Positions 28,456 through 60,177 of a stretch of 64,000 nt of DNA are shown in pieces (the stretch's first letter is position 1; each line of letters starts with the position of its first letter). Below the pieces are notes generated by a model that was not told the DNA's origin, made no database searches, and saw only the letters and a program-made list of their open reading frames with translations. Both the position numbers and the translations under genes were made by a program. This DNA comes from Rossellomorea marisflavi (GTDB lineage Bacteria; Bacillota; Bacilli; Bacillales; Bacillaceae_B): contig NZ_CP081870.1 of assembly GCF_022170785.1 (NCBI RefSeq), positions 1,848,001 to 1,912,000 on the forward strand, in the 5' to 3' direction.

Positions 28456-28540
28456 TGTGGCTTGAGCGAAAGCTTGACCACTGATCCCGATGTTCCGCTG
28501 CAATACATCGCTTTTGTATGAGCATCTGTTGGAAGGAGTT
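28456..28540 (+). ncRNA. L19 (rplS) mRNA leader
   Basis: Between promoter and gene lie about 90 bases with a clear fold: GTGG/CCAC closing a stem that contains GCTT...AAGC, then GATG/CATC enclosing ATACA/TGTAT. The position and layout fit the Rfam L19 leader described in Bacillales. It is thought to be an autoregulatory site for L19; the ligand is not proven by the sequence. Confidence 0.7.
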
Positions 28541-28547
28541 GAATAAG

Positions 28548-28892
28548 ATGCACAAATTAATCGAAGATATTACGAAAGAACAACTTCGCTCTGATCTACC
28601 ATCTTTCCGTCCTGGTGATACAGTACGCGTACACGTTAACATCGTGGAGGGTACTCGTGAACGTGTCCAGGTTTATGAAGGTGTCGTAATCAAACGCCGC
28701 GGTGGCGGTATCAGCGAAACATTCACAGTTCGTAAAATTTCTTACGGTGTAGGTGTTGAACGTACATTCCCTGTACACACACCAAAAATCGCTAAACTAG
28801 AAGTCATTCGTCGCGGTAAAGTCCGTCGTGCGAAACTTTACTACTTGCGTAACCTACGTGGTAAAAAGGCTCGGATTAAAGAAATTCGATAA
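28548..28892 (+). CDS. rplS: 50S ribosomal protein L19
   Basis: Large-subunit protein at the 30S-50S interface. The 114 residues begin M-H-K-L-I-E-D-I-T and include [11 protein letters not shown] and [22 protein letters not shown] lies upstream of ATG 28548. Highly expressed codon use. Own promoter, leader and terminator. Confidence 0.97.
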
Positions 28893-30607: not shown

Positions 30608-31381
30608 ATGGAACGAATTGATATGACAGTGTCCGAGATAAAAGAAACACTTAAACAACTGGCAGAAGATGATCCCCTATGGGACCAACTGAAGCTCGAC
30701 CCGCGCAAGGGTGTCCGTCAGTTGGTCAGAAGTGCGGAAACCTCCCGTGAGAAAAAGGCGAAGGAGATTGCCGAGTTTACGCGCATGTCCATCCATGAAA
30801 ACGAATTATGGAACGCTGGGTATGATCATATTGCCGGAATAGACGAAGTCGGCAGGGGACCACTTGCTGGGCCCGTAGTGGCCGCTGCTGTCATCCTTCC
30901 TCACGATTTCCACCTCCCGGGACTCACGGACAGCAAAAAGGTGCATGAGCGGAAACGCGAAGCATTCTTCGACACGATCATGGAGCAGTCGATCGCGACC
31001 GGTATCAGTATCATCGGACCGGAAGTAATCGATGATATCAATATATATGAAGCGACAAAAAAAGCGATGAGTGCAGCGATCGGTGAACTTTCGGTACAGC
31101 CCGATCATCTATTGATCGATGCCATGCCGCTTACGACACCATACCCGAGCAGGTCCATCATCAAGGGAGATGCCACCAGCATCTCGATTGCGGCTGCTTC
31201 CATCATCGCGAAGGTGACAAGAGACCGTCTGATGAAGGAGTATGCCGTCACCTATCCTGGCTATGGTTTTGAAAAAAATGCGGGGTATGGAACGGCGGAT
31301 CACTTGAGCGGGTTGGATCAGTACGGAGTGACACCCATACATAGAGCCAGTTTTGCACCGGTTAGAGATAGAATCACGTAA
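30608..31381 (+). CDS. rnhB: Ribonuclease HII
   Basis: Removes ribonucleotides from DNA. The 257 residues have an N-terminal extension typical of Bacillus RnhB (1-72) and the catalytic core with Asp79-Glu80 in GIDEVGRGPLAGP, Asp in LTDSKK and DAMPL. GAGAGGT lies upstream of the ATG. ylqG follows after 14 bases. Confidence 0.96.
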   Translation: MERIDMTVSEIKETLKQLAEDDPLWDQLKLDPRKGVRQLVRSAETSREKKAKEIAEFTRMSIHENELWNAGYDHIAGIDEVGRGPLAGPVVAAAVILPHDFHLPGLTDSKKVHERKREAFFDTIMEQSIATGISIIGPEVIDDINIYEATKKAMSAAIGELSVQPDHLLIDAMPLTTPYPSRSIIKGDATSISIAAASIIAKVTRDRLMKEYAVTYPGYGFEKNAGYGTADHLSGLDQYGVTPIHRASFAPVRDRIT

Positions 31382-31395
31382 AGGGAGCTGATGCT

Positions 31396-33057
31396 ATGGA
31401 ACGGATCCAAGGAAGGGGAGAACAAATACTGGGTCAAGAACCCAAACCCTTGAGCTTTTCACCAGGACGGGTCCTGCTCATCCGTGTCAACCGCTTGCTT
31501 GGAGATGGGACTGCAGAAGTCTCCGCGGGTGGACATCGTTTCATCGCCAGCGTCCAGACCGGCTTAAAAGCAGGGGAAAGCTACTGGGTGGAGACGAAGC
31601 AGACCGGAAATGGAATCGGTCTCTCGGTTCTTACGGACCGCTCCCAAGAAGGGGGAGGACACACCTTGGATTCCCTCCTCTCGCACTATTCACTTAAACG
31701 AGAAGGGCCAATCAAGGAGCTGATCGGAGAGGCCCTGCGGCTCAATGTACCGATCTCAAGGGCCATGATTGAATTTGCTGCGTCAGTCGGAGATCGTCTG
31801 AACCCCGACATTATCCTGAAGATGGAGAGACAGCATCTCCCATTTGTAGATCGAGTATATAGGTCACTAGAGGCTGGTGGGAAACAACCAACACTTTTGA
31901 CCGGCATTGAAGAATTGAAGAATCAACTGATTGCTGTTGGCTCGACTTCAGAGGCAGAGAAGCTCATGAAGAACGTTCAAGCACCCCTTGAAACCCTGGT
32001 AGGGGGGAAGGTTGCTGACCGGGCATTGTGGATATTGGCAGACGATGCGCAGCCTTTCCCGCAGCGGCTGGCTGCCCTAGACCTTTTAAGGGAGCTTGGT
32101 GTCCTGCACAATCATAGCAGGATGGGTCAATGGAAGGAAGAACTGCTGAAAACCATTCTGAAGTCTTTCCCTGATGCGGTAGCTGCTGAAGAAGGGTTGG
32201 CCAAACTGGGAGCCGGACTTACGGGAGATCGTGAAGTATCCAAGCAACCGTCAGTCCCCCGTTCGCCTGAGGACCTGAACGTTACTGCTCTCAGGGTGAT
32301 AGATGCCATCATCACGGCAAAAAAGGAACTCATCTCATCTGTGCATTCACCTATAGTGGTTAGAACCGCTGCGGGACAATTTGAAGGGCATGATAGCATG
32401 ACGAACAAGGATTCGCTCCATTCACAGCTCCGGACCATCGTGCTTGATGAACTGAAAGATGCCATTCATGGCCGGGACATTTCACAGCTGCTTAAAAGGG
32501 CAGTCTCATCCCTCGGGTTGAATTATGAAACAGATCCCTTCGTGGATTCAGCCAAGCGGCAGCTGATTCAGCTCAGTCAAGGGCATCCGGTGGCTGCCAT
32601 TAGGGAAAGTGCCGATGAAATTGTCCTGAAAATGAATCACCCTGCCCTCATGTCACAGGATCAGTCCGGTTTTCTCACCATTGTCCATCAGATCCCCCTC
32701 TATCACGCAGGGGGCCAGACCGATGTGACCATCCAGTGGAGCGGGAAGAAAACCAATTATGGCCAGATCGACAGCAGCCAATGCAGAGTGATGTTCTACC
32801 TTCATCTCGGTCATTTGGACGAGACCATCGTCGACCTGCAGATTCAGCAGGGGGTCCTGCAAATCGTCGTATGGAATGAGCATCCGAATATAAAGGATCT
32901 TGCCCGCGAATTCCTGCCTGCCCTTAAAAAGGGCATTGAAGAGAACGGTTATACATTCTCCTCCATACTCTTCAAAGTCCCGGATTCGCGTCCGGGACCT
33001 GCAAGCGTGACCGATCAGCACCCAGGCGTGCACAAAGGAGTGGATATCCGCATATGA
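31396..33057 (+). CDS. ylqG: YlqG, FliK-like protein outside the flagellar operon
   Basis: Uncharacterised in B. subtilis. The 553 residues look FliK-like. An N-terminal barrel-like segment (about 25-75, with AEVSAGGHRFIASVQTGLKAG) resembles the start of many FliK-like proteins. The C-terminal segment (about 460-530) has the Flg_hook pattern: YLHLGHLDETIVDLQIQQG, a gap, then LAREFLPALKKGIEENGY. This aligns by eye with the FliK C-terminus in this window. No signal peptide or membrane segment. Overlaps ylqH by 4 bases. Function unproven. Confidence 0.75.
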   Translation: MERIQGRGEQILGQEPKPLSFSPGRVLLIRVNRLLGDGTAEVSAGGHRFIASVQTGLKAGESYWVETKQTGNGIGLSVLTDRSQEGGGHTLDSLLSHYSLKREGPIKELIGEALRLNVPISRAMIEFAASVGDRLNPDIILKMERQHLPFVDRVYRSLEAGGKQPTLLTGIEELKNQLIAVGSTSEAEKLMKNVQAPLETLVGGKVADRALWILADDAQPFPQRLAALDLLRELGVLHNHSRMGQWKEELLKTILKSFPDAVAAEEGLAKLGAGLTGDREVSKQPSVPRSPEDLNVTALRVIDAIITAKKELISSVHSPIVVRTAAGQFEGHDSMTNKDSLHSQLRTIVLDELKDAIHGRDISQLLKRAVSSLGLNYETDPFVDSAKRQLIQLSQGHPVAAIRESADEIVLKMNHPALMSQDQSGFLTIVHQIPLYHAGGQTDVTIQWSGKKTNYGQIDSSQCRVMFYLHLGHLDETIVDLQIQQGVLQIVVWNEHPNIKDLAREFLPALKKGIEENGYTFSSILFKVPDSRPGPASVTDQHPGVHKGVDIRI

Positions 33058-33335
33058 GCAGGGAACAAAAGCGTAAAGCGGCAGTAGCGCTTGGATATGA
33101 CCGTACTATCGACGGGTCTCCCCGTGTCATGGCCAAGGGGAATGGCCTGATTGCCGAAGAGATCCTCAGGAGGGCTGTAGAGCATGACATCCCTGTTCAG
33201 GAGGATGAAACGCTGGTAGGTCTCTTGGGACAGCTTGATATCAATGAGTCGATACCTGAGGAGCTTTACGGGGCGGTTGCCGAGGTGTTCGCCTTCATTT
33301 ATCGCGTGGATAAATCATTCCACGAAGAGAAGTAA
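33054..33335 (+). CDS. ylqH: YlqH, soluble FlhB C-terminal domain homologue
   Basis: The 93 residues match the cytoplasmic C-terminal domain of FlhB: AVALGYD, VMAKGNGLIAEEIL, VEHDIPVQEDETLVGLL, and IPEELYGAVAEVFAFIY align with the FlhB end encoded at 59905-60170. It begins about where autocleaved FlhB begins; the NPTH cleavage motif is absent. No membrane segments. Resembles FlhX of epsilon-proteobacteria. Coupled to ylqG. Confidence 0.88.
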   Translation: MSREQKRKAAVALGYDRTIDGSPRVMAKGNGLIAEEILRRAVEHDIPVQEDETLVGLLGQLDINESIPEELYGAVAEVFAFIYRVDKSFHEEK

Positions 33336-49876: not shown

Positions 49877-50467
49877 ATGGCTAAATCAAAAGAAATCGAC
49901 AACCCACAGCCTCACGGACGATTCCAGAAATTTGTATTCATCGTCCTGATCCCGATCCTGTTCATCATTGTCGTGACGCTGGTGGTATTGACGGCAACGG
50001 GAACAAACGTATTCGAAAAAGCACAATCACTGGGAGTTCATCTTCCGTTTACCAACGATAAGGAACCAGCATCCGCTGATACTGAGAAAGAAGATACGAA
50101 TGCCCTCAAGGTGGTAATAGAAGATCAAAAAGCTGAAATCGCTCAGTTGAACTCTTCCCTGGAGCAGAAAACGAAAGAAGCGGACGGGCTGAATGCATCC
50201 TTTGAGCAACAAGCTTCCGAAATGGAGGAACTCCGTCAAACGGGAGAAGAAAGCAAGCGTTCCTTTAAAGAGATCATCTCTACCTATGAAGCAATGTCGG
50301 CAAAAAATGCGGCACCGGTCATCCTGAATTTAAAAGATGATGATGCCGTCAGGATTCTGTCTAGCGTCAAGCCGGCGACATTGGCATCCATCCTTGAAAA
50401 AATGCCCCCGGCTGATGCAGCAAAATATACGGCCTTGATCACTGCGGAAGAAGGAGCGAGCCAATGA
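49877..50467 (+). CDS. ylxF: YlxF, MotE-like flagellar operon protein
   Basis: Conserved flagellar operon protein of unclear role. The 196 residues have one membrane segment (about 20-42), a coiled coil (about 75-130) and a C-terminal MgtE-N/MotE-like domain (from about 135, ILNLKDDDAVRILSSVKPATLASILEKM). Cytoplasmic N-terminus, extracellular rest. ATGA overlap with fliK. Confidence 0.88.
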   Translation: MAKSKEIDNPQPHGRFQKFVFIVLIPILFIIVVTLVVLTATGTNVFEKAQSLGVHLPFTNDKEPASADTEKEDTNALKVVIEDQKAEIAQLNSSLEQKTKEADGLNASFEQQASEMEELRQTGEESKRSFKEIISTYEAMSAKNAAPVILNLKDDDAVRILSSVKPATLASILEKMPPADAAKYTALITAEEGASQ

Positions 50468-51639
50468 TGCAAATCACTCCATTGATGAATCAGCTAGGTG
50501 CCCTATCAGCTTCCTCCGAAGCTCCTGGAGTAGAAGCAGGTGGGGATGCGCTCTTCACTTCTCAGCTTCTGGGCTTCCTGGGACAAGTGCAGGTTGGTGG
50601 AGCTAAGCCCGACGAAGCTGAACAGCCTTCACTCCTGCAGAACCTTGAACTTCTCCTTCAATCAGATAGCCTGTCGGGACTCGGAGTACCTGAAGGAGAG
50701 TTGGATGCACAGTCAGATGGTGAAGAGGTGACGATGGAAGACATGGCAGAGCTTCTTGGAATCGATGTGGAAGCTCTCCAGGCCTTTCATGCTGCACTGC
50801 TGAAAGAGATGCACATCACCTCAGGCAGTGTCGAACCCCCTGATGATCTTCAAGAGCTCGTAGCCGGAATCCTGCATCTTTCGAAGGAGCTTCCCTCGGA
50901 CATCAAGTCTCAGCCACTTGAACAGGCAGTCAAACTGATCCGGGCAATGCAGCTTTTGAGCGCTTCGGGTAAATCAGAGTGGAATGACACGTTTGAATCG
51001 GCCCAGATCAAAGAGGCGCTCAAGGAGCTTCTGATCAGGATAGAAGGAACAGGTCAAGCGGTAACTCGGAAAGAACCCGAACTGAAGGCCGGGAACCAGG
51101 GAGACAAGGTATCACGAGATGTGCCGGCCGGTTTGAATGCTTTTCAACCTGCCACTTCTTCACAAGGTATATCCACAGCCACAGTGAAAGCGAGTTTATT
51201 CATAAAACCCGAACAGCCTGAGAGTGTGGTTCAGCAGTTTCAGAGCCTGTTAGGCAAGTCACAGTTTTCTTCCATGGGCTCGATGAGCAAGCTGTTCATC
51301 AAGCTTTACCCCGAGCATTTGGGTTCCGTCAGGATCGAGCTGCTTCAGCAAAACGGTGTGATGACAGCAAAGATCTTGGCATCTTCGGCATCGGCAAAGG
51401 AAATGCTTGATTCCCATCTGCAAGGATTGAAGCAGGCTTTTCACTCTCAAAATATCCAAGTCGATAAAATCGAAGTGTCACAGAGTCTGAGCGATCCTGA
51501 AAGGGCGTTCAAGGGTCAATCACACCAGCAGCCCAAAGAACATGGTCAAAAACAAGGCGGACACGATAGGGAACAAGATGCAGATATAGACACGGATTTC
51601 AAGGAGTTACTCATAAAGAATGAACAGGTGATAACATGA
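50464..51639 (+). CDS. fliK: Flagellar hook-length control protein FliK
   Basis: Measures hook length and switches FlhB specificity. The 391 residues have a low-complexity N-terminal ruler and a compact Flg_hook domain (about 265-340, LFIKLYPEHLGSVRIELLQQ and LQGLKQAFHSQNI). The Gln/His-rich tail is exported-protein-like. Overlaps flgD by 4 bases. Confidence 0.93.
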   Translation: MMQITPLMNQLGALSASSEAPGVEAGGDALFTSQLLGFLGQVQVGGAKPDEAEQPSLLQNLELLLQSDSLSGLGVPEGELDAQSDGEEVTMEDMAELLGIDVEALQAFHAALLKEMHITSGSVEPPDDLQELVAGILHLSKELPSDIKSQPLEQAVKLIRAMQLLSASGKSEWNDTFESAQIKEALKELLIRIEGTGQAVTRKEPELKAGNQGDKVSRDVPAGLNAFQPATSSQGISTATVKASLFIKPEQPESVVQQFQSLLGKSQFSSMGSMSKLFIKLYPEHLGSVRIELLQQNGVMTAKILASSASAKEMLDSHLQGLKQAFHSQNIQVDKIEVSQSLSDPERAFKGQSHQQPKEHGQKQGGHDREQDADIDTDFKELLIKNEQVIT

Positions 51640-58301: not shown

Positions 58302-59078
58302 ATGGAGCAGCTTGTCCCGTTATTATCGGTATATTTATTGATATTTGTCAGGGTTTCATCTTTTTTTATTACCATGCCCCTGTTTTCCTATAGAACCATA
58401 CCTGCTCAGCATCGAATCGCGTTTTCTGCTGTCATTTCATGGGTGATGTATTATTCCGTGGAAGCTTCGGCGTTTGATATCAACGGTGAATACATCCTGT
58501 TGATTATGAAGGAAGCCCTTGTCGGCCTCCTGATCGGATTTATCGCCTATATGATCCTATCCGCCGTGCAGATTGCCGGGGGATTGATTGATTTTCAGAT
58601 GGGGTTTGCCATCGCGAATGTGATTGACCCTCAGACGGGTGCTCAAAGTCCGCTCATGGGGCAATACCTCTATACATTCGCCCTGTTGCTGTTGTTGACA
58701 TTGAACGGTCATCATCTCTTGCTCGATGGGATCTTTTACAGCTATAAGCTCATACCCATCGATCAGGCGTGGATCCCCTTCGGCAACGAAGATATGGTGG
58801 ATTACGTTCTGAAGGCATTCAATTCCATGTTCATCGTCGCCTTTCAAATGTCGATTCCCGTTGTTGCCACACTTTTCCTTGTCGATGTGGCGTTGGGGAT
58901 CGTGGCACGTACCGTCCCGCAGCTCAACATTTTTGTAGTCGGATTCCCGATCAAGATTGCGGTTTCGTTTATCATTCTCTTCATTGTCATGGGCGTCATG
59001 TTTGCCGTGATGCAAAAGTTGTTCGGGATGATGCTCGTCACCATGAGGGACTTAATGAACATCATTGGAGGCACATAA
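58302..59078 (+). CDS. fliR: Flagellar export gate protein FliR
   Basis: Gate subunit completing the FliPQR cone. The 258 residues have about six membrane segments, with VQIAGGLIDFQMGFAIANVIDP as signature (about 90-111) and a polar loop before the last segments. The ribosome-binding site (TAAGGG) is weak and close, suggesting coupling to fliQ. Confidence 0.95.
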   Translation: MEQLVPLLSVYLLIFVRVSSFFITMPLFSYRTIPAQHRIAFSAVISWVMYYSVEASAFDINGEYILLIMKEALVGLLIGFIAYMILSAVQIAGGLIDFQMGFAIANVIDPQTGAQSPLMGQYLYTFALLLLLTLNGHHLLLDGIFYSYKLIPIDQAWIPFGNEDMVDYVLKAFNSMFIVAFQMSIPVVATLFLVDVALGIVARTVPQLNIFVVGFPIKIAVSFIILFIVMGVMFAVMQKLFGMMLVTMRDLMNIIGGT

Positions 59079-59079
59079 A

Positions 59080-60177
59080 TTGAAGCTTTTGAAACTGGAC
59101 CTGCAGTTTTTCAGTGGGGAGAAGACCGAGAAGGCAACACCGAAAAAAAGGGACGATGCACGCAAGAAAGGGCAGACCGCTAAGAGTCAGGATGTGAATA
59201 CGGCGATCATCCTCCTGTCGGTATTCATGTTTATGCTTTTCGGGGCATCCTTCCTTGGAGATGTTGTATTCGATCTGTTCCATCAGACGTTTCAGGAGTA
59301 CATGCTCATGGACCTGACGGAGAAAAGCATTCGTGTAATCACCCTGGATATAATGAAAGAGCTCGCTTTGCTTCTCGGCCCCATCATGCTTGTCGCATTG
59401 CTTGCCGGACTTGTGGCGAACTATATCCAGGTGGGAGTGATGTTCACGGTTGAGCCGATCCAACCAAAGTTGGAAAAGATCGATCCGATTAAGGGATTTA
59501 AACGGATCTTTTCCCTGAGGGCGATCGTTGAGCTCGTAAAATCGATCCTCAAGATCGGTTTCGTGGGAACCATTACATTCGTGATCCTCTGGATCAATAT
59601 CGATAAGGTACTGAGCCTTTCATTTAAATCAGTCGGTGATTCGTTGCTCACAATGGGAAAGCTTACCGTCCAGATGGGTATCGCAGCCTCGATTGCGCTC
59701 CTGTTCCTTTCTCTGTTCGATTTCCTCTATCAAAGATATGACTTCGAGAAGAATATCAGGATGTCAAAGCAGGATCTGAAGGATGAACATAAAAACATCG
59801 AAGGCGATCCGCTGATCAAGTCGAAAATCAAGCAGAGACAGCGGGAAATGGCCATGCGAAGGATGATGCAGGAGGTTCCCCAGGCGGACGTCATCATCAC
59901 GAATCCGACGCATTTTGCCATCGCCCTTAAGTACGATGAAACGAAAATGGACGCTCCTTTCGTTGTGGCAAAGGGTGTTGACTTCCTGGCGCAAAAAATC
60001 AAATTCATCGCAAGTGAGCATGATGTTGTCACCATTGAAAATCGACCGCTTGCAAGAGCCCTCTATGATGCAGCTGATATAGGGGATGCTGTCCCGGAAG
60101 AATTTTTTAAGGCTGTGGCAGAAATCCTTGCGTACGTATACAAAACCAAAAAAACACATGCCCTACATAAGGAGTGA
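59080..60177 (+). CDS. flhB: Flagellar export specificity switch protein FlhB
   Basis: Gate protein that changes substrate class after autocleavage. The 365 residues begin M-K-L-L-K-L-D-L-Q-F-F with GEKTEKATPKKR. Four membrane segments follow, then the cytoplasmic domain with the NPTH autocleavage site at Asn275-Pro276. TTG 59080 matches homologues; GGAGG lies about 8 bases upstream. Confidence 0.96.
   Translation: MKLLKLDLQFFSGEKTEKATPKKRDDARKKGQTAKSQDVNTAIILLSVFMFMLFGASFLGDVVFDLFHQTFQEYMLMDLTEKSIRVITLDIMKELALLLGPIMLVALLAGLVANYIQVGVMFTVEPIQPKLEKIDPIKGFKRIFSLRAIVELVKSILKIGFVGTITFVILWINIDKVLSLSFKSVGDSLLTMGKLTVQMGIAASIALLFLSLFDFLYQRYDFEKNIRMSKQDLKDEHKNIEGDPLIKSKIKQRQREMAMRRMMQEVPQADVIITNPTHFAIALKYDETKMDAPFVVAKGVDFLAQKIKFIASEHDVVTIENRPLARALYDAADIGDAVPEEFFKAVAEILAYVYKTKKTHALHKE

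What the first reader, a model, noticed from the sequence alone, without database searches (positions are those of the whole stretch)
31396..33335. ylqG-ylqH: a second FliK/FlhB-C-like pair outside the flagellar operon
YlqH is a free-standing copy of the FlhB cytoplasmic switch domain that starts about where FlhB autocleaves, without NPTH. YlqG, overlapping it by 4 bases, carries at its C-terminus the Flg_hook pattern of FliK. FliK and FlhB-C act on each other in the export switch, so co-inheritance of a matched pair suggests an accessory or competing specificity switch, or a repurposed module. Both are listed as uncharacterised in B. subtilis, to my knowledge. The true FliK and FlhB are present in this window.
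Basis: partly seen in the sequence, partly recalled or inferred. Interest (0 to 1): 0.7.

Follow-up and report, generated by a model that had tools for sequence, protein, structure and literature searches.

The report
Second flagellar export-switch protein pair
Beside a housekeeping gene, this bacterium carries an old and widely shared pair of proteins that resemble free-standing versions of the two parts of the switch that makes a growing flagellum stop building its hook and start its filament; what the pair does has not been tested here.

Summary
ylqG (31396-33057) and ylqH (33054-33335) overlap by 4 bases. YlqH is a free FlhB C-terminal (FlhB-CC) domain without NPTH; YlqG ends in a Flg_hook/T3S4 domain (profile-profile 98.3%). 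The pair is not local: 129 of 141 ylqH loci examined, from nine phyla, have a FliK-C-like gene touching ylqH, and second copies of ylqH bring their own (9 of 10). In Bacillota, ylqH goes with the flagellar export gate, one draft genome apart. YlqH and FlhB-CC are split by one strongly supported branch, so YlqH is one old family (named flhB_rel/FlhX), not a decayed local FlhB. Main new point: many YlqG proteins end in the same C-terminal tail as FliK (YlqG GVDIRI; E. coli FliK GVDIFA), whose last five residues matter for switching in Salmonella; YlqH keeps the early-substrate pocket; and in many Bacilli FliK has lost that tail while YlqG keeps it. Best reading: an accessory export-switch module acting from the cytoplasm. 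Function is untested, and an AlphaFold chain did not place the tail on YlqH. Novelty: new variant of a known kind.

The parts
31396..33057 (+). ylqG, FliK-C-like protein of 553 aa
   Evidence: ORF; Flg_hook
31456..31635 (+). YlqG residues 21-80, N-terminal beta barrel, OB-like
   Evidence: AlphaFold model m10403b6e0a0c, pLDDT 77-87 by blocks of ten, whole model only 61.9 and pTM 0.33; weak Foldseek hits to chains known to me as OB folds, such as eIF1A in 9h6y_j (E 3.1e-3) and 3wwv (E 0.23)
31657..32094 (+). YlqG residues 88-233, helical region
   Evidence: model, pLDDT 48-85 by blocks of ten
32650..32976 (+). YlqG residues 419-527, Flg_hook / T3S4 domain
   Evidence: model pLDDT 65-69 for 421-440 and 80-92 for 441-530; fold match 5cuk PscP SS domain (prob 1.00, E 0.023, rmsd 2.5) and, weakly, 2rrl FliK-C (prob 0.82, E 0.14); Pfam stretch 465-527
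33037..33054 (+). YlqG last six residues GVDIRI, FliK-type C-terminal tail
   Evidence: sequence; 18 of 18 proteins in A7 end in hydrophobic/aromatic-[DN]-hydrophobic/aromatic-[RK]-[VI]; wider counts
33054..33057 (+). 4-base overlap ATGA of the ylqG stop and ylqH start
   Evidence: sequence; gap of exactly -4 in 34 of 133 locus pairs measured
33054..33335 (+). ylqH, free FlhB-CC-like domain of 93 aa
33117..33122 (+). YlqH S22-P23, counterpart of FlhB pocket residues A286-P287 (Salmonella numbering)
   Evidence: alignment; pocket residues as listed in PMC13344023 (passage)
33279..33290 (+). YlqH A76 and F79, counterparts of FlhB pocket residues A341 and L344
   Evidence: alignment
30608..31381 (+). 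rnhB, upstream gene, 14 bases before ylqG
   Evidence: RNase_HII 135 bits; rnhB found near ylqH in 46 of 140 other loci
50464..51639 (+). fliK proper; it ends in NEQVIT, without the tail
   Evidence: Flg_hook 63.9 bits; sequence
59065..60177 (+). flhB proper, with ADVIITNPTH
   Evidence: PF01312 445 bits; sequence

Best explanation
YlqG-YlqH is an accessory flagellar export-switch module. YlqH is a soluble stand-in for FlhB-CC: it keeps the pocket where early (rod/hook) substrates dock but has no membrane part and no cleavage site. YlqG is a relative of FliK that does not look like a plain ruler: an OB-like N-terminal domain, a T3S4 domain and the FliK-type C-terminal tail. Encoded side by side with a 4-base overlap, they act from the cytoplasm on the export gate: YlqG acts through its T3S4 domain and tail on an FlhB-CC-type domain (its partner YlqH, or FlhB-CC itself) as FliK-C acts on FlhB-CC, so setting when early-substrate docking is available. 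Shown here: homologies, linkage, flagellar co-occurrence, shared tail, kept pocket, old single family. Inferred: action at the flagellar export gate (about 0.85), physical complex (about 0.75), tail contact with an FlhB-CC-type domain (about 0.6); whether it holds early mode, resets it, or helps to leave it is open.
For: Pair linkage: a FliK-C-like ORF directly upstream in 123 of 141 ylqH loci, directly downstream (order reversed) in 4 (L063, L084, L093, L182), overlapping an over-called ylqH start in 2 (L199, L229). Of 10 second-copy YlqH genes in nine loci (L334, L337, L344-L350; families f132, f136, f138, f146), 9 have their own 580-1048 aa upstream ORF that matches the YlqG-C profile (E 7e-17 or better) and ends in the tail, 8 of 9 by the strict pattern. 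A second Flg_hook match (E <= 0.001) lies beside ylqH in 31 of 40 genomes with YlqH; of 40 genomes taken as lacking it, 1 (G223) has two matches, 36 one, 3 none. Flagella: of 299 Bacillota genomes 250 have FlhA and 250 a TIGR00789 match; the two lists differ, by eye, only in G023 and G220. Of 48 named YlqH genomes outside class Bacilli (44 outside Bacillota), 46 have a further TIGR00789 match, 45 of FlhB size or cut by a contig end and one (G491) a fragment. Tail: strict pattern in 52 of 60 and 53 of 73 upstream ORFs, background 142 of 40027 internal FliK positions; E. coli FliK ends GVDIFA; the last five FliK residues matter for switching in Salmonella (PMC10965912 passage; PMC13344023 section). 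Pocket: A286 135, P287 141, A341 140 of 141; position 344 is L 117, F 14, M 5, I 3, Y 2. Tree: one branch, 100/99, separates 49 YlqH from 25 FlhB-CC.
Against: No call tests function or binding. The AlphaFold chain that reads YlqG-C through into YlqH (L179) left the tail unplaced, pLDDT 26-33. In Negativicutes the FliK-C-like upstream protein lacks the tail (L061, L209, L224, L235, L242), and 20 of 73 upstream ORFs in the named set miss the strict pattern, some near variants such as AISIKA, some wrong ORFs. 12 of 141 loci show no FliK-C-like neighbour, of which L196, L207 and L211 lie near a contig end. At least 66 of the flagellated Bacillota genomes have a single TIGR00789 match, read as FlhB alone, so YlqH is not needed for flagella in general. 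The genes sit with rbgA/rnhB far more often than with flagellar genes. B. subtilis clones with ylqG P457Q still swarmed (PMC11523185, section 18), though whether that change breaks YlqG is unknown. G023 has ylqGH and fliK but no FlhA and no second TIGR00789 match.
Confidence: 0.6

Rival explanations
1. Spare part: YlqH replaces FlhB-CC after it is lost from the gate, restoring early-substrate docking, and YlqG is mainly its chaperone or carrier.
For: Helicobacter HP1575, an FlhB C-terminal homologue, is called a 'spare part' when FlhB-CC is deleted (title of Wand et al. 2006, seen only in a reference list; the paper is not held). YlqH keeps the docking pocket. In Salmonella FlhB-CC is reported lost at the switch and needed for early secretion (PMC13344023, abstract and passages).
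Against: Does not by itself explain why the partner is a FliK relative that in most loci keeps the FliK tail.
Confidence: 0.22
2. Division of labour in Bacilli: FliK keeps the ruler but the C-terminal trigger of the switch is supplied by YlqG.
For: FliK lacks the strict tail in 45 of 64 sampled Bacilli with YlqH, in at least one genome of 14 of 24 such families; the YlqG tail is there in 20 of 20 Bacilli loci read for it. In family f5 FliK has the tail in 3 of 3 genomes without YlqH and 0 of 9 with it (Fisher p 0.0045). None of 58 genomes with both proteins read lacks both tails.
Against: Over the sampled Bacilli the association is weak: tail in 5 of 11 without YlqH and 19 of 64 with (p 0.31). 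FliK without the strict tail and without YlqH occurs in f2, f141 and f145 (G465, G484, G314, G331, G346, G358). Genomes are related and unevenly sampled (16 of the 64 are family f4). The 0 of 58 is not strong: chance gives 0 with p 0.02 (strict) or 0.26 (relaxed), and 0.09 or 0.52 once two cases scored on a wrong ORF (G075, G081) are mended.
Confidence: 0.15
3. Repurposed module with a non-flagellar job, for instance tied to the rbgA-rnhB housekeeping cluster.
For: Gene neighbourhood: rnhB in 46 and rbgA in 41 of 140 loci; nine core flagellar proteins of the window are matched in 8 of 140 loci in all, and FlgE-type in 5; UPF0102 downstream in 13 of 49.
Against: Goes with FlhA/FlhB, one draft genome apart; pocket and tail, both export-switch features, are kept.
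Confidence: 0.07
4. Dispensable relic kept by linkage.
For: Absent in some sublineages, e.g. G465 and G484 against G245 in one genus.
Against: Invariant YlqH residues in 58 aligned proteins, second copies that keep the pair, old single family.
Confidence: 0.04

Closest known systems
FlhX / flhB_rel (TIGR00789), including Helicobacter HP1575
   Same: Free FlhB-CC domain without membrane part; YlqH matches the family model over its length
   Different: Of HP1575 I saw only the title of the paper, and did not examine whether it has a FliK-like partner; here most loci have one. PMC9321776 names 'flhX-fliK' among genes outside the main cluster of Nitratiruptor (passage).
FliK (Flg_hook, PF02120) and its T3S4 relatives such as PscP
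   Same: C-terminal domain and C-terminal tail
   Different: YlqG has an OB-like N-terminal barrel, lies outside the flagellar operon and has its own FlhB-CC-like partner
FlhB
   Same: CC domain and early-substrate pocket
   Different: YlqH has no membrane part, no NPTH, and is split from FlhB in the tree

Membership tests
flhB_rel / FlhX (TIGR00789) | Match to the family model over its length | tested here: met
   1-83 of 84 positions, E 9.4e-29
flhB_rel / FlhX (TIGR00789) | Score above the curated cut-off of 117.35 bits | tested here: not met
   99.5 bits; only 2 of 299 Bacillota genomes have a match over it, so the cut-off is strict. I place YlqH in the family by coverage and tree, not as a match that NCBI's own rule would name
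flhB_rel / FlhX (TIGR00789) | Separate from FlhB-CC in a tree | tested here: met
   49 YlqH rows against 25 FlhB rows, one branch, 100/99
FlhB | Membrane domain plus NPTH autocleavage motif | tested here: not met
   93 aa, PF01312 positions 261-335 only; NP[TV]H in 0 of 141 YlqH
Flg_hook / T3S4 (PF02120) | Domain homology | tested here: met
   profile-profile 98.3%; 42 of 57 relatives match at E <= 0.01; fold 5cuk prob 1.00 though E 0.015-0.023. The window protein alone stays below the curated cut-off
FliK (hook-length ruler) | FliK-type C-terminal tail | tested here: met
   GVDIRI against E. coli FliK GVDIFA
FliK (hook-length ruler) | Secreted ruler that sets hook length | not testable with these tools
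   needs a bench test; the N-terminal OB-like barrel speaks against a plain ruler

The most novel reading that the evidence does not exclude
In many Bacilli the last step of the flagellar export switch is delivered in trans: FliK measures the hook but has lost its C-terminal trigger, and YlqG, working with the FlhB-CC mimic YlqH, supplies it from the cytoplasm.
Probability: 0.15. Interest if true: 0.85.

Novelty: new variant of a known kind. Interest (0 to 1): 0.6.

Why it matters
How FliK flips FlhB has been under study for decades (PMC13344023, section read). A natural, free pair of the two reacting domains, found in nine phyla and annotated in the easily worked B. subtilis (ylqG in PMC11523185), offers a soluble, minimal version of that reaction. 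The shared C-terminal tail, and its absence from FliK in many Bacilli, give direct and cheap mutational tests.

Tried and rejected
Donor-strand idea: the YlqG tail (GVDIRI) resembles the FlhB strand before NPTH (ADVIITN in the window; ADVVITN or ATVVITN in six others) that YlqH lacks. I modelled YlqG-C read through into YlqH from locus L179; both domains folded, the tail was not placed. The alignment behind it was shallow for YlqG (8 joined rows of 40) and misaligned some tails, so this is a weak negative. Two earlier alignments were discarded because MAFFT laid YlqG-only rows on YlqH.

Loss of the FliK tail against YlqH presence: significant in one family only, not overall; reported as a lead. 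The tail pattern was written after seeing the tails; its background comes from internal positions of the same FliK proteins. 'No genome lacks both tails' does not stand as evidence after correction.

The ylqG P457Q clones of PMC11523185: all four such clones swarmed; not used as evidence of function. A consensus scan found no sigma-70-type promoter between rnhB and ylqG.

At least two loci occur in both sets (L047/L166 and L063/L182, equal contig lengths). Three of 26 fetched FlhB stretches were dropped from the tree because a script pattern missed them (L362, L364, L371). Counts of single and multiple matches were made by eye. In one search L063, L084 and L182 were scored on a wrong upstream ORF; one search shows the right one. 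One FliK (L123) runs into the end of its stretch.

Full report
What is there. ylqG (31396-33057) and ylqH (33054-33335) overlap by ATGA and follow rnhB by 14 bases. YlqH is a free FlhB-CC domain. YlqG by itself scores only 18.4 bits against Flg_hook, but its family is FliK-like at the C-terminus: 42 of 57 upstream proteins match Flg_hook at E <= 0.01, and the profile comparison with FliK-C gives 98.3% (E 1.3e-14) while the control with YlqG N-terminal ends gives 6.5%. Models match the PscP substrate-specificity domain 5cuk (prob 1.00, E 0.015 and 0.023, rmsd about 3) and, weakly, the FliK C-terminal structure 2rrl (prob 0.82, E 0.14). The model of the window protein (mean pLDDT 61.9, pTM 0.33) shows an N-terminal barrel (residues 21-80), helices to about 233, a low-confidence middle, the T3S4 domain (419-527) and a disordered end. 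The best fold matches of the N-terminal part are chains that I know as OB folds, with E 3e-3 at best, so 'OB-like' is likely but not firm.

A true pair. In 141 ylqH loci (60 from unnamed Bacillota genomes, 80 named loci, the window; at least two loci occur twice), a FliK-C-like ORF lies directly upstream in 123, directly downstream in 4 and overlapping the called start in 2; 12 have none in reach. Between ylqH and the longest upstream ORF the spacing is 25 bases or less in 103 of 133 and exactly a 4-base overlap in 34. Some Bacilli carry further copies of YlqH: of 10 such genes in nine loci, 9 have their own large YlqG-like protein upstream, matching the YlqG-C profile at E 7e-17 or better, 8 of them with the 4-base overlap. 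The pair thus duplicates, and flips its order, as a unit.

Linked to flagella. Of 299 Bacillota genomes, 250 have a TIGR00789 match and 250 have FlhA; the positive lists differ, by eye, only in G023 and G220. G023 has ylqGH and a Flg_hook FliK but no FlhA and no second TIGR00789 match, which in a draft genome may be a missing piece; G220 has a weak FlhA match only. By my count 67 of the 250 have one TIGR00789 match (66 read as FlhB alone, G023 as YlqH alone) and 183 two or more, the usual sign of FlhB plus YlqH but not checked one by one. In 200 Bacilli the figures are 146 with a match, 14 of them single. Of 48 named YlqH genomes outside class Bacilli, 46 have a further match, in G491 only a fragment; G497 and G502 have none. 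Record titles and the tree's origins name nine phyla: Bacillota, Nitrospirota, Thermodesulfobacteriota, Myxococcota, Aquificota, Thermotogota, Hydrogenedentota, Nitrospinota and Actinomycetota. The genes lie mostly away from flagellar genes: rnhB is near in 46 and rbgA in 41 of 140 loci, nine core flagellar proteins in 8 in all; RNase HII is the next gene up in 19 of 53 and UPF0102 the next down in 13 of 49.

Old family. A tree of 49 YlqH and 25 FlhB-CC domains puts each on one side of a branch with 100/99 support and length 1.03 (91 columns, 30 of 71 inner branches open, bootstrap not fully settled). YlqH is therefore best read as one family, not repeated decay of local FlhB.

The tail. Upstream proteins of ylqH differ greatly (9% mean column identity), yet many end in hydrophobic-[DN]-hydrophobic-[RKT]-[VIA]: 52 of 60 in the Bacillota set and 53 of 73 in the named set by a strict pattern, where internal positions of FliK proteins match in 142 of 40027. 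FliK has the same kind of tail: 56 of 64 outside Bacilli, most of the rest near variants, and E. coli FliK ends GVDIFA. The last five residues of FliK are stated to be important for switching in Salmonella (PMC10965912, passage), and PMC13344023 (abstract, two sections and passages seen) proposes that they act on FlhB-CC so that it is ejected. So YlqG carries the switch end of FliK.

The pocket. The residues listed as the early-substrate pocket (A286, P287, A341, L344; PMC13344023 passage) are kept in YlqH: 135, 141 and 140 of 141 for the first three, and L, F, M, I or Y at the fourth. The window YlqH has S, P, A, F. An NP[TV]H string is absent in all 141.

A lead in Bacilli. The window FliK ends NEQVIT, without a tail. 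Among sampled Bacilli with YlqH, 45 of 64 FliK lack the strict tail, in 14 of 24 families, while 20 of 20 YlqG read there keep it. In family f5 the three genomes without YlqH keep the FliK tail and the nine with YlqH lack it (p 0.0045). But overall the association is not significant (p 0.31), f2, f141 and f145 contain genomes with neither strict FliK tail nor YlqH, and the absence of genomes lacking both tails is within chance after correction. I therefore treat 'the tail moved to YlqG' as the bold reading, not the main one.

What it most likely does. See Best explanation. The steps from homology to function are inference. The one structural test of tail contact that I could run was negative but weak. 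In the paper library my searches showed no study of YlqG or YlqH function: ylqG appears in a mutation table of clones that still swarm, ylqH as an annotation, FlhX in flagellar gene surveys and a table. Most subscription papers are not held, so this does not show that nothing is in print.

Noticed in passing
L334, L337, L344-L350 (Bacilli families f132, f136, f138, f146): Further YlqG-YlqH pairs elsewhere in the genome, with a much longer YlqG-like protein (580-1048 aa) and tails such as EGVDFSV; L350 holds two YlqH genes within 6 kb.
   Followed up: partly
L061, L209, L224, L235, L242 (Negativicutes); FliK of G249 in L130: The FliK-C-like upstream protein has no tail, while the FliK of G249 ends in a YlqG-type tail (EGVDYRI).
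   Followed up: no
L063, L084, L093, L182: Gene order reversed: ylqH first, the FliK-C-like gene directly after, tail kept (GVNYQV, YVNLQI, GVNYKV). L063 and L182 appear to be the same record.
   Followed up: partly
L210, L213, L221, L227, L244: YlqH without a FliK-C-like neighbour (Thermodesulfovibrionales, Thermovibrio, Sporomusa, Pelosinus), like a lone FlhX.
   Followed up: no
window 28487-28528: Rfam L19_leader (38.1 bits, gathering 36), upstream of the 124-aa ORF at 28518-28892.
   Followed up: no
G023 (L052, L115): Draft genome with ylqGH and a FliK but no FlhA match and no FlhB match.
   Followed up: partly
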